Shown: positions 50,526 to 52,586 of the stretch, piece after piece | Numbering within the stretch: position 1 is the stretch's first letter | Layout of the letters: each line of letters begins with the position of its first letter | NCBI RefSeq assembly: GCF_014196455.1 | Contig: NZ_JACIDS010000007.1 | Span: 1 to 64,000, forward strand | DNA length: 64,000 nucleotides | Source: Kaistia hirudinis | GTDB taxonomy: Bacteria; Pseudomonadota; Alphaproteobacteria; Rhizobiales; Kaistiaceae | Direction of reading: 5' to 3' | The notes under the pieces: model-generated | Told to the model about the DNA's origin: nothing | The model's input: the letters and a program-made list of their open reading frames with translations, nothing else | Databases searched by the model: none | Made by a program: the position numbers and the translations under genes

Positions 50526-51125
50526 ATGGTGGACGCCGCCCTCATCCAGGCTTGCGCCGATCCCGGCCTGAAGCCTGCCATCGTCGAGAAATTCGTCGAG
50601 CAGGCAGGATCTTCGGACCCTCTGGCGATCACTGTCCGATCCGGCACCCGCGTCGTGTTGGTGCTGAGGCCTTCGTCGCCCGACGCCGCAATGGAGCTGG
50701 TGCGACAATATGTTGGCAAAGCGGCCGTTCGCGTCGGCATCACACAATATCCTGCCGGTCTCGGGATGTCCGACGCGGCGGAACTCAAGCCAGATCTGCT
50801 CGATGCCTGCGCGAACATTCGGATGGGTACCGGAATGTTCGCCAAGGTCTATCGCATCGTCACGAAATGGTACGGCAGTGCGCGCGAGGAGGCCTTCGAC
50901 GATGCGATCGATGCGTGGAAGAGCGGGTACTTCGAAGGCACGTACGTCTTCACCGAGCCGGACCCCGGCGAGACGAAGCTCGCGGTGCCGCGCTCCGGCG
51001 CAGGTGATTCGAATGGCGACGCGGGACCCGTCGAGCCGCCAACGCCTGGACGAGGTGGCGATTCCGATCCCAACAAGGCGGAGACGCGCGTCGATCTATC
51101 AAAAATCGGCGGGCGCTCGCCCTGA
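50526..51125 (+). CDS. traH: conjugal transfer protein TraH
   Basis: The ATG at 50526 follows TGGAGATCTGCCG, 15 bases after the traB stop. The 199-residue product matches TraH of the Ti type over its first 145 residues (MVDAALIQACADPGLKPAIV, IRMGTGMFAKVYRIVTKWYG). The C-terminal 50 residues are a low-complexity, Pro/Gly/Asp-rich tail. It ends the traAFBH operon. Its role is accessory and not well defined. Confidence 0.87.
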   Translation: MVDAALIQACADPGLKPAIVEKFVEQAGSSDPLAITVRSGTRVVLVLRPSSPDAAMELVRQYVGKAAVRVGITQYPAGLGMSDAAELKPDLLDACANIRMGTGMFAKVYRIVTKWYGSAREEAFDDAIDAWKSGYFEGTYVFTEPDPGETKLAVPRSGAGDSNGDAGPVEPPTPGRGGDSDPNKAETRVDLSKIGGRSP

Positions 51126-51331
51126 GGCGCAGATCGGCGCGGCAACGCGACATGGACGCTACCTGAGGCCTCATCAACGCTGACACCACAGGCAGAGCCA
51201 CGTCCACATAAATGGGCTGCTTCTCATGGGGTCGTCGAGCAATTCTCGTGACCAATGCCCTCCACGCGATGGTCGTGGCTAGAACGCGGCAGCCTCCATC
51301 TCTATAAGAGACGCAGGGCGGTACGCGCCGC

Positions 51332-51483
51332 CCGGGGGCTTAGAAACCCCTTGCATAGCGGTTGGTGCCGGCTGTTGCGGCACCGGATCCTCTGGCCATT
51401 GGCCGGGGGCCTGTGACGCATGTCCAGGTGCCTCGGTACTAAAGGTCATAGGGGCCGTCTATGCACGGTTTTCTAACCCCCGG
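51332..51483 (+). ncRNA. structured RNA region with C4-antisense-like complementarity
   Basis: The arm 51332-51348 (CCGGGGGCTTAGAAACC) is complementary to 51467-51483 (GGTTTTCTAACCCCCGG): 16 pairs with two single-base bulges. A second pairing, GCATAG (51353-51358) with CTATGC (51459-51464), lies just inside. Between them is a perfect hairpin, GGTGCCG with CGGCACC (from 51364). Two separated complementary arms around a hairpin, upstream of an open frame, are the design of the C4 antisense RNA of phages P1 and P7, and the sequence resembles that family as I recall it. Family membership is not proven. The target would be the mRNA leading into traM. Confidence 0.55.
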
Positions 51484-51544
51484 CTTGGGTTCAAAGGATT
51501 GTCGTCGGCGGGGGCGCACCGCGGACTAACTTTGCTTGGTGGCG

Positions 51545-51859
51545 ATGTCGGATTCGGACCTTTCCAGCGAGGCGAAATGTGGAGAGGTTCTTCGGGACTA
51601 TCTCGCATCCGTGGACAAGACGATGCTGGAGCGCCTGGTCATCGACGCGATCCGGGAGCATCGATGTCTTCTGGAATCGGACCAATTGCTCCACGAGGAA
51701 TGGCAGCGCGCGGCCACAAGCCCCTCGGTTCCGCAGGAACATGCTGAAGCATTGCGCGCTCACTGCCTCGACAGGCAGCAAGCCACCGCGGCCCAGCAGG
51801 AGGTCCTATCCTACATGCTGAATCTGCTCGGTTATATCCCGAACGTGCCGACCGATTGA
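51545..51859 (+). CDS. traM: TraM antiactivator of TraR
   Basis: The 104-residue protein (ATG 51545; a TTG at 51536 is less likely) matches TraM: LERLVIDAIREHRCLLESDQ, an all-helical middle, and the typical ending LSYMLNLLGYIPNVPTD. TraM binds TraR and blocks quorum-dependent activation of tra genes. It converges with traR, with ten bases between the stops, the arrangement of Ti plasmids. The structured RNA region upstream may add a second level of control. Confidence 0.8.
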   Translation: MSDSDLSSEAKCGEVLRDYLASVDKTMLERLVIDAIREHRCLLESDQLLHEEWQRAATSPSVPQEHAEALRAHCLDRQQATAAQQEVLSYMLNLLGYIPNVPTD

Positions 51860-51869
51860 ACGGTGGCGG

Positions 51870-52586
51870 TCACTCGGGTCCAAGGAGCCCGTGATCCTTG
51901 GCGATAGCAACCGCCTGGACCAAGTTTGCAGCGTCGAGCTTGCCGCGCACATTGTCAAGATAGTGTTGCACTGTACGGTGCTGCACATTTGTCAGATCGG
52001 CGATGTCCTGCATCGATTTGCCCTTTGCCGCCCATCGGAGGCAAACAAGCTCCTTCGGCGACAGGCCGAAGTCGAGCACGTGGGCTGGGCGCTGTGCCAG
52101 CACCTTCAATCGATAGTAGGTACACAAGGCAGCCCGCACCGCGCCTTCCGCATCGCGTGCAAACGAAGAATCCGTCCGCGGACGTGAGGACGCCAAGGTC
52201 AACATCAAGGTGGACTGGAAACTGCCACGAACGGCCGTCGTAATGCCGGACCGAATGCCAAAATCCATCGCCTCCGACCGGAAGCGCTTAAGTTCACGGG
52301 ACTCGTCATGTTTCGCCCACCCCTCCGCTGACCAGTCGAACATCGCCATTCGGCGCTTTGCTTGGGTGACGACCGGATCGATCACTGAATATCTATTGCG
52401 GAGATAGATGCCTTCCCATTCCGACGGATAACTGTTGAAAGTCTTGATGTCAGACGCAGCAATCTGGAGATATGCGAAGCGCTCGAAGCCACACGAGACG
52501 GCATAATTCTTCAGAGCGATTTTGACCGTTCGCTCGTCGTTTGCGACATCGACTGTGTCGATCAGGGATTGGATCTGTTCGTTCAA
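51870..52586 (-). CDS. traR: TraR, LuxR-type quorum-sensing activator
   Basis: The 238-residue LuxR-family protein starts at TTG 52586 behind AGGAGGG. The autoinducer-binding domain (residues 1-165) has the conserved Trp, Tyr and Asp in SEWEGIYLRNRYSVIDPVV. The C-terminal helix-turn-helix is LSPKELVCLRWAAKGKSMQD with TVQHYLDNVRGKL. In Ti plasmids TraR with its acyl-homoserine lactone activates the tra operons. No traI synthase is in the window, so it may respond to a signal made elsewhere. Confidence 0.88.
   Translation of the reverse strand: MNEQIQSLIDTVDVANDERTVKIALKNYAVSCGFERFAYLQIAASDIKTFNSYPSEWEGIYLRNRYSVIDPVVTQAKRRMAMFDWSAEGWAKHDESRELKRFRSEAMDFGIRSGITTAVRGSFQSTLMLTLASSRPRTDSSFARDAEGAVRAALCTYYRLKVLAQRPAHVLDFGLSPKELVCLRWAAKGKSMQDIADLTNVQHRTVQHYLDNVRGKLDAANLVQAVAIAKDHGLLGPE

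What the first reader, a model, noticed from the sequence alone, without database searches (positions are those of the whole stretch)
51332..51860. C4-antisense-like RNA upstream of traM
Two arms 118 bases apart are complementary over 16 pairs (7, 7 and 2, with two single-base bulges), a second six-base pairing lies inside, and a perfect hairpin lies between. P1 C4 RNA uses exactly such complementary segments to block translation of a short leader frame overlapping the antirepressor gene. Here a short frame from TTG 51499 overlaps the start of traM in another register, similar to that design. If real, an immunity-type antisense RNA controls a quorum-sensing antiactivator in a conjugative element, which I do not know to be described.
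Basis: partly seen in the sequence, partly recalled or inferred. Interest (0 to 1): 0.75.

Follow-up and report, generated by a model that had tools for sequence, protein, structure and literature searches.

The report
C4-like RNA leader of traM
In front of the conjugation brake gene traM lies a large, conserved folded RNA built like the C4 immunity RNA of phage P1, which suggests that plasmids and phages share one kind of RNA switch; that it actually controls traM is not yet shown.

Summary
The traH-traM gap holds a ~210-nt structured RNA, from a promoter-like -10 box (start ~51315) to a hairpin at 51504-51526 just before traM.

On 96 aligned copies, 92.2% of base-pair cells hold and 48 of 69 pairs change on both sides. 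Part by part it matches phage P1's a1-b1-C4 precursor: 5' hairpin, short hairpin with a1 in its 8-nt loop, b1, spacer hairpin, three-stem domain with b' and a'.

It is not a member of Rfam C4 (no match). Reciprocal model hits make it a relative of sRNA-Xcc1 (RF02221), which covers only its 3' domain. Some distant relatives precede phage antirepressors and repeat a1/b1 words at the ribosome site.

Not supported: the outer seven pairs (no compensatory change), the TTG 51499 frame (start codon in 3 of 40 rows), an a2/b2 target at traM here. In four Rhizobiaceae copies a TraR box sits 64.5-66.5 nt before the predicted start.

Control of traM by a processed antisense RNA remains inference.

The parts
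51303..51308 (+). -10-like box (TATAAG) of the RNA's own promoter; predicted start ~51315
   Evidence: In 79 of 96 homologues a -10-like box ends 7-8 nt before helix A; mean best promoter score 7.5 against 5.97 for shuffles. In L010, L024, L046 and L048 a tra box is centred 64.5-66.5 nt before helix A, the class I spacing. The window itself has no tra box (9/18, P 0.78).
51316..51333 (+). Helix A: 5' hairpin with loop UACGCG
   Evidence: 6 of 6 pairs with two-sided changes, 95.1% of cells paired; counterpart of the first hairpin of P1 c4-a1b1
51335..51350 (+). Helix B: 4-bp hairpin whose 8-nt loop carries a1 (51340-51346)
   Evidence: 99.0% of cells paired; same form as the a1 hairpin of RF03163 in phage P1
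51352..51358 (+). b1 segment, pairs with b' (51459-51465)
   Evidence: 7 of 7 pairs with two-sided changes; 87.3% and 87.0% of cells paired (helices 6 and 5)
51364..51384 (+). Helix D: spacer hairpin
   Evidence: 7 of 7 pairs with two-sided changes, 94.2% of cells paired
51401..51485 (+). C4-like / sRNA-Xcc1-like domain: P1 stem 51401-51409/51477-51485, P2 51410-51417/51445-51452 with 51427-51432/51435-51440, P3 51455-51457/51466-51468 holding b' (51459-51465), a' strand 51470-51476
   Evidence: Helices 8-11 (97.9, 97.9, 79.4 and 98.6% of cells paired); RNAalifold predicts the P1, P2 and P3 stems by itself, not the inner 51427-51440 hairpin; topology as in RF01695 and RF02221; reciprocal model hits
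51504..51526 (+). Helix J: 3' hairpin, core 51508-51522 (GCGGGGGCGCACCGC), just upstream of the traM ribosome site
   Evidence: Core stem identical in 96 of 96 sequences, but the core was part of the search pattern; the outer 4 pairs all have two-sided changes
51536..51859 (+). traM, TraR antiactivator gene (start TTG 51536 or ATG 51545)
   Evidence: PF09228, E 9.3e-24
51870..52586 (-). traR-like LuxR-type activator, convergent with traM
   Evidence: PF03472 E 4.7e-26 and PF00196 E 8.2e-13
50526..51125 (+). traH, last gene upstream
   Evidence: PF06871, E 9.3e-84

Best explanation
The traH-traM gap encodes a C4-type antisense RNA precursor that forms the leader of traM. Transcription starts at ~51315 at the RNA's own promoter, which looks TraR-activated in several Rhizobiaceae. 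The RNA folds into a 5' hairpin, a short hairpin presenting a1, the b1 segment, a spacer hairpin, and an 85-nt three-stem domain (51401-51485) with b' in a hairpin loop and a' in a single strand; in the full transcript a1/b1 can mask a'/b' by long-range pairing. By analogy with C4 and sRNA-Xcc1, the 3' domain is probably cut free at its 5' stem end and acts as a small antisense RNA that lowers translation of traM-type mRNAs, so the quorum-sensing brake would carry an immunity-type RNA control. Shown: fold with covariation, promoter-like box at a fixed place, relationship to sRNA-Xcc1, layout equal to that of P1 C4. Inferred: transcription start, processing, antisense action, traM as target.
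For: Structure: 69 pairs on 96 sequences, 92.2% of cells paired; 830 two-sided cells against 239 +/- 17 in shuffles and 99-136 in slid versions. Same part order as P1: a1-b1 gap 5 nt against 7, domain 85 against 77 nt (Rfam alignments). The model of 51335-51485 finds 12 of 30 loci brought in by RF02221 at E < 0.001 over its full length. Relatives precede AntA (2), P22_AR_N (1) and Phage_pRha (1) proteins among 8 tested; L208 carries both a true C4 and a relative. In the distant set b' shares 7 nt or more with the ribosome site (as complement) in 12 of 41 loci (1.98 expected) and a' in 15 of 41 (2.17 expected). In the close set the a' strand does so in 24 of 90 (11.5 expected), TraM subset 8 of 26 (3.04 expected, P 0.0012); cognate a' duplex energy P 0.0005. 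GGU, a GGW site as described for RNase P on C4, stands at the P1 stem start in 62 of 96. sRNA-Xcc1 was mapped as an 88-nt RNA with a ~100-nt Northern band. tra boxes at -64.5 to -66.5 in L010, L024, L046, L048 (0 of 200 shuffles as good), weakly in L011 (P 0.085).
Against: No match of the window to RF01695 or RF03163 at E <= 10; in the own genome the best RF01695 score is 18 bits, elsewhere; the model built here does not hit P1 C4 (0.7 bits) and misses 16 of 30 RF02221 loci even at E 10. b' shows no cognate fit to the ribosome site in the close group (P 0.76 by energy; P 0.93 by shared words). In this window 26 of 210 mechanical ORF starts pair better with b'/a' than traM does. The first, simple duplex test found no excess in either set (mean z -0.21 and -0.35); in the non-redundant distant set the energy test was significant for a' only. 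20 of 26 traM loci, the window among them, show no tra box, and L011 only a weak one. Rows are related, so P values from swapping are optimistic. No expression data for this RNA were seen; the main text of an A. tumefaciens C58 RNA survey does not mention traM.
Confidence: 0.6

Rival explanations
1. A purely cis-acting structured leader of traM (riboswitch-like or protein-binding) that never acts in trans; the a1/b1-a'/b' pairings are only its tertiary fold.
For: The a1/b1-a'/b' pairings covary strongly; b' has no cognate fit to the ribosome site in the close group; the same leader precedes unrelated genes (TraM 27, PF10074 19, HTH_3 7 of 90); the internal loop with ATGTCCAGG and CTAAAG is highly conserved, though CTAAAGG was part of the search pattern.
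Against: The fold is that of a known antisense precursor; distant relatives repeat the a1/b1 words at the ribosome site beyond swapped partners; its relative sRNA-Xcc1 accumulates as a separate 88-nt RNA.
Confidence: 0.25
2. An independent small RNA gene with targets elsewhere; traM merely lies downstream.
For: sRNA-Xcc1 is called trans-acting (title of its paper seen in a reference list) and was mapped as a discrete 88-nt RNA; b' does not fit traM.
Against: 138 of 142 copies have an ORF of 50 aa or more starting within 130 nt downstream in the same direction (mechanical ORFs, and the 142 hold the window's own element three times, so a weak test). In four Rhizobiaceae copies a tra box sits at class I spacing from the RNA's start, and traM is known to have a tra-box promoter (passages).
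Confidence: 0.12
3. A DNA-level repeat (transposon end, MITE or protein-binding dyad), not an RNA.
For: It contains inverted repeats and occurs on plasmids and contigs of many lineages.
Against: Single copy in its own genome by blastn and by the model (one match at E 5e-29, the next at 0.19; a weak RF02221 hit on contig C2 is not confirmed by the model); covariation including pseudoknots; -10-like box at fixed distance.
Confidence: 0.02

Closest known systems
C4 antisense RNA of phages P1/P7 (Rfam RF01695) with its a1/b1 leader (RF03163, c4-a1b1)
   Same: Order of parts: 5' hairpin, 4-bp hairpin with a1 in an 8-nt loop, b1, spacer hairpin, P1/P2/P3 domain with b' hairpin loop and a' strand, promoter just upstream, regulator gene downstream
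   Different: No profile match either way; P2 is longer with a conserved internal loop; conserved 3' hairpin J where P1 has a2/b2; downstream gene is traM and others, not icd/ant; no b2 found at traM
sRNA-Xcc1 (RF02221), Xanthomonas, in integron cassettes upstream of symE
   Same: Same consensus structure of the 3' domain; sub-threshold RF02221 hits in the window (24.1 bits) and in L005 (36.2 bits), reciprocal hits of the model built here in 12 of 30 loci; it too lies upstream of a gene (passage in PMC12444791)
   Different: The Rfam family covers only ~87 nt of the 3' domain; the window score is below the gathering cut-off of 53
C4-like Group 1 sRNAs of Acinetobacter baumannii (PMC5320573)
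   Same: C4-type domain accumulating from longer transcripts, starting at GGW (passages)
   Different: Matched the Rfam C4 motif; not tied to conjugation genes in the passages seen
TraR/TraM quorum sensing of Ti plasmids
   Same: traM next to traR here; TraR-activated traM promoter with a tra box (passages in PMC3907764)
   Different: No structured leader RNA is mentioned in the passages seen

Membership tests
C4 antisense RNA (RF01695, RF03163) | Scores with the family's covariance model | tested here: not met
   No match at 51100-51900 at E <= 10; own genome best 18 bits elsewhere; positive control P1 gives 68.8 and 51.0 bits
C4 antisense RNA (RF01695, RF03163) | Three-stem domain with b' in a hairpin loop and a' in a single strand before the closing stem | tested here: met
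   Helices 8-11 with covariation against the structure line of C4
C4 antisense RNA (RF01695, RF03163) | Upstream a1 in the loop of a short hairpin, then b1, complementary to a' and b' | tested here: met
   Helices 3-6; P1 layout
C4 antisense RNA (RF01695, RF03163) | a2/b2 target copies at the downstream ribosome site | tested here: inconclusive
   Not outstanding at traM in the window (26 of 210 ORF starts pair better); close set: b' negative, a' positive; distant set: both positive by shared words, only a' by energy in the non-redundant 28
C4 antisense RNA (RF01695, RF03163) | RNase P cut at GGW at the 5' end of the closing stem | not testable with these tools
   GGU stands there in 62 of 96 rows, the window has GGC at 51401-51403; cutting itself needs an experiment
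C4 antisense RNA (RF01695, RF03163) | Short leader frame (icd type) overlapping the regulated gene | tested here: not met
   TTG 51499 is a start codon in 3 of 40 rows with a letter, 56 gaps
sRNA-Xcc1 (RF02221) | Score above the gathering cut-off of 53 bits | tested here: not met
   24.1 bits in the window, 36.2 in L005
sRNA-Xcc1 (RF02221) | Common ancestry (reciprocal profile hits, same structure) | tested here: met
   Model R1 hits 12 of 30 RF02221-found loci at E < 0.001, full length; 2 more at E 0.02-0.11, of which one lies elsewhere in its locus
FinP/FinO-type antisense control | ProQ/FinO-family RNA chaperone present | tested here: not met
   PF04352 absent from the own genome; 5 of 142 genomes of the class carry it, none among the 25 with an RF02221 match at E <= 0.1
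TraM antiactivator (PF09228) for the downstream gene | Pfam model above cut-off | tested here: met
   84.2 bits against a cut-off of 22.2

The most novel reading that the evidence does not exclude
C4, sRNA-Xcc1 and this traM leader are branches of one superfamily of immunity-type antisense RNAs that phages, conjugative plasmids, integrative elements and integron cassettes share. Each guards the translation of a decision gene (antirepressor, TraM, QseM-like DUF2285 antiactivator, SymE, XRE regulator), and the fast-changing b1/b' words act as immunity groups, so that a resident plasmid's RNA can act on the brake gene of an incoming related plasmid.
Probability: 0.3. Interest if true: 0.88.

Novelty: new variant of a known kind. 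Interest (0 to 1): 0.76.

Why it matters
TraR/TraM of Ti plasmids is a much-studied quorum-sensing circuit, yet traM is preceded there by a ~210-nt RNA with a complex conserved fold, apparently under the TraR-activated promoter. If it works as its architecture suggests, conjugation control gains an RNA layer shared with phage immunity. sRNA-Xcc1, whose mode of action is not given in the passages I saw, gains relatives and a likely mechanism, and specific tests of cross-plasmid immunity become possible.

Tried and rejected
FinO/ProQ-dependent antisense control: suggested by a ProQ/FinO gene beside the element in an octopine-type Ti plasmid, dropped because ProQ is absent from the own genome and did not co-occur with RF02221 matches.

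Transposon end or MITE: dropped, single copy and covariation.

Kissing between the loops of helices A and J: three pairs are nearly invariant and so say nothing; the fourth fails in 55 of 96. Left open.

Target tests, all told. Simple duplex z against the downstream 110 nt: mean -0.21 on 96 rows and -0.35 on 46 loci, 4 of them below -2. Swapped-partner energies: close set of 90, a' P 0.0005, b' P 0.76, both P 0.001; distant set of 41, a' P < 0.0002, b' P 0.037, both P 0.007; its 28 non-redundant loci, a' P 0.027, b' P 0.60, both P 0.29. Shared words: close set a' P < 0.0002, b' P 0.93; distant sets P < 0.0002 for a' and b'; TraM subset of 26, a' P 0.0012, b' P 0.20. I chose the shared-word test after the energy test, so it is not an independent confirmation.

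Rows dropped: of 137 copies 98 remained at 90% identity; L049 and L139 were left out of A1 because their 5' half is not homologous (96 rows). L050 and L113, whose 5' part is a group II intron end, stayed in A1 and in its counts and were left out of A2 (94 rows). 90 of 96 had a usable downstream ORF, 41 of 46 in the distant set. Some start codons are doubtful (distances of 55-127 nt). In some searches the traM start was entered as 51548; the ATG is at 51545, so the stem-to-ATG gap is 59, not 62.

Full report
What is there. The window holds traH, then a 410-nt gap, then traM (PF09228) and a convergent traR-like gene; traA, traF and traB upstream are named from their place and length and from the same gene order in Ti plasmids. 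The gap encodes a conserved structured RNA. Its stretch 51325-51500 folds far better than shuffles (z -4.0, 0 of 200). A distant blastn search at E <= 0.01 finds it in 353 plasmid records, 140 of them over at least 80% of the query, mostly Agrobacterium (184) and Rhizobium (75). 3 viral contigs also match, and one phage-labelled record. In its own genome it is single copy at E < 0.1.

Structure. From 137 copies, 98 were non-redundant at 90% and 96 were aligned. A structure of 69 pairs, including pseudoknots, keeps 92.2% of cells paired. 48 pairs have two-sided changes, and 830 cells do, against 239 +/- 17 in shuffles and 99-136 in slid versions. RNAalifold on 94 rows predicts B, D and the three stems of the 3' domain by itself. 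The parts are: hairpin A; hairpin B with an 8-nt loop; a strand (b1); hairpin D; a three-stem domain (F, G/H, C5); and hairpin J, whose core GCGGGGGCGYACCGC is invariant, though it was part of the search pattern. The loop of B pairs with 51470-51476, and b1 pairs with the loop of C5.

Start and direction. In 79 of 96 copies a -10-like box ends 7-8 nt before helix A. Among 26 traM loci examined, 4 have a tra box centred 64.5-66.5 nt before helix A that no shuffle of 200 equalled (L010, L024, L046, L048, each 14/18). L011 has a weak one at 64.5 (11/18, P 0.085), L028 has one at 44.5 (13/18, 0 of 200), and the other 20 show none, the window among them. [quoted passage not shown] So in those plasmids the RNA very probably starts the traM mRNA.

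What it resembles. The GenBank record of phage P1 annotates a1, b1, the 77-nt C4 RNA, a2 and b2 before icd-ant. On it, Rfam C4 scores 68.8 bits and c4-a1b1 51.0 bits; their structure lines show a hairpin, a 4-bp hairpin with an 8-nt loop holding a1, and a closing stem with two hairpins and an unpaired a' strand. This is the layout of the traM element part by part. Yet the window gives no C4 match at E <= 10, and a model built from the element (R1) gives P1 only 0.7 bits. It is built like C4 but cannot be filed as a C4 member.

The bridge. Rfam sRNA-Xcc1 matches the window's domain at 24.1 bits (cut-off 53) and L005 at 36.2 bits. A search for that family in 142 genomes of the class found matches at E <= 0.1 in 25, in 3 over the cut-off, up to 13 in one genome. 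R1 finds 12 of 30 loci fetched from those matches at E < 0.001 over its full length and gives nothing for 16 even at E 10. So at least for these the Rfam family is the 3' part of a larger RNA. R1 is found in 13 of 101 relatives and 23 of 200 genomes of the phylum, the own genome counted in both. Some hits precede antirepressor genes: AntA twice, P22_AR_N once, Phage_pRha once, among 8 proteins tested. One contig carries both a true C4 (51 bits, cut off by the contig end) and a relative (L208). In Xanthomonas integron cassettes sRNA-Xcc1 lies upstream of symE (passage of PMC12444791), and it was mapped as an 88-nt RNA (passages of PMC2996969).

Does it target the ribosome site? In the distant set the complement of b' recurs at the downstream ribosome site over 7 nt or more in 12 of 41 loci (1.98 expected from swapped partners), and that of a' in 15 of 41 (2.17 expected); in 28 non-redundant loci 7 (1.46) and 12 (2.18). 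By energy, the same 28 support a' only (P 0.027; b' 0.60). Four loci of one genome change b1 and the ribosome-site word together (L150, L172, L173, L174). Complements of a' and b' also lie upstream in 22 and 21 of 28 (4.2 and 3.0 expected). In the close traM/DUF2285 set b' shows nothing (P 0.76 and 0.93), while a' with the stem's 3' strand is in excess: 24 of 90 against 11.5. In two Ti plasmids GGGTTAG faces CTAACCC (L010, L011), and in three other Rhizobiaceae GGTTGGA faces TCCAACC (L024, L046, L048). In the window itself 26 of 210 ORF starts pair better than traM. Rows are related, so these tests overstate independence. The cis target in the traM group is thus open; hairpin J stands where P1 has a2/b2.

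Genes served. Of 90 downstream proteins, 27 match TraM, 19 PF10074, 7 each HTH_3 and HTH_31, 2 each MarR_2 and HD_5, with GGDEF and others once. The abstract opening of PMC10359603 (search listing) describes DUF2285 proteins in activation and antiactivation of conjugative element transfer; that the short PF10074 proteins here are QseM-like is my inference and recall.

Judgement. A C4-type precursor, new branch, leading traM: fold and relationships are shown; transcription start, processing and regulation are inferred. C4 biology comes from passages of PMC5320573, PMC8201110 and PMC8546580. PMC3738593 was seen as abstract and passages, PMC6341043 and PMC2864571 as passages. I saw no report of this RNA in searches; subscription papers and supplements were not available.

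Noticed in passing
L050:723-795 (+) and L113:889-961 (-): Group II intron 3' ends (RF00029, 67.6 bits each) lie directly 5' of b1 in two elements of Phyllobacterium phragmitis, so introns may have entered the same site twice.
   Followed up: partly
G193, 13 places (11 fetched: L152, L162-L171): A 1.4-Mb genome carries 13 sRNA-Xcc1 matches, several before similar small proteins of unknown function.
   Followed up: partly
G000:C2:31497-31620 (-), L179: Weak RF02221 hit (29.7 bits, E 0.0083) on another contig of the own genome; the model built here does not confirm it.
   Followed up: partly
L011:2072-2404 (+): A ProQ/FinO-family gene lies between traH and the element in an octopine-type Ti plasmid; no general link was found.
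   Followed up: yes
L010:772-863 (-) and L011:226-317 (-): The known Rhizobiales sRNA Atu_Ti1 (RF02506) lies antisense within traB.
   Followed up: no
L036, L086, L147: In Acidobacteria (L036, an HD-domain protein by Pfam; L086, similar by sequence) and a viral contig (L147, PAS-GGDEF) the element precedes signalling proteins rather than conjugation genes.
   Followed up: partly
L198:2889-2953 (-): A type II hammerhead ribozyme (66.4 bits) lies ~1.2 kb from a C4-like element.
   Followed up: no
L049, L135, L139: Copies that keep only the 3' half of the element.
   Followed up: no
L214:514-721: One unannotated phage-labelled record from human faeces (MT836939) carries the element at 75.8% identity.
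   Followed up: partly
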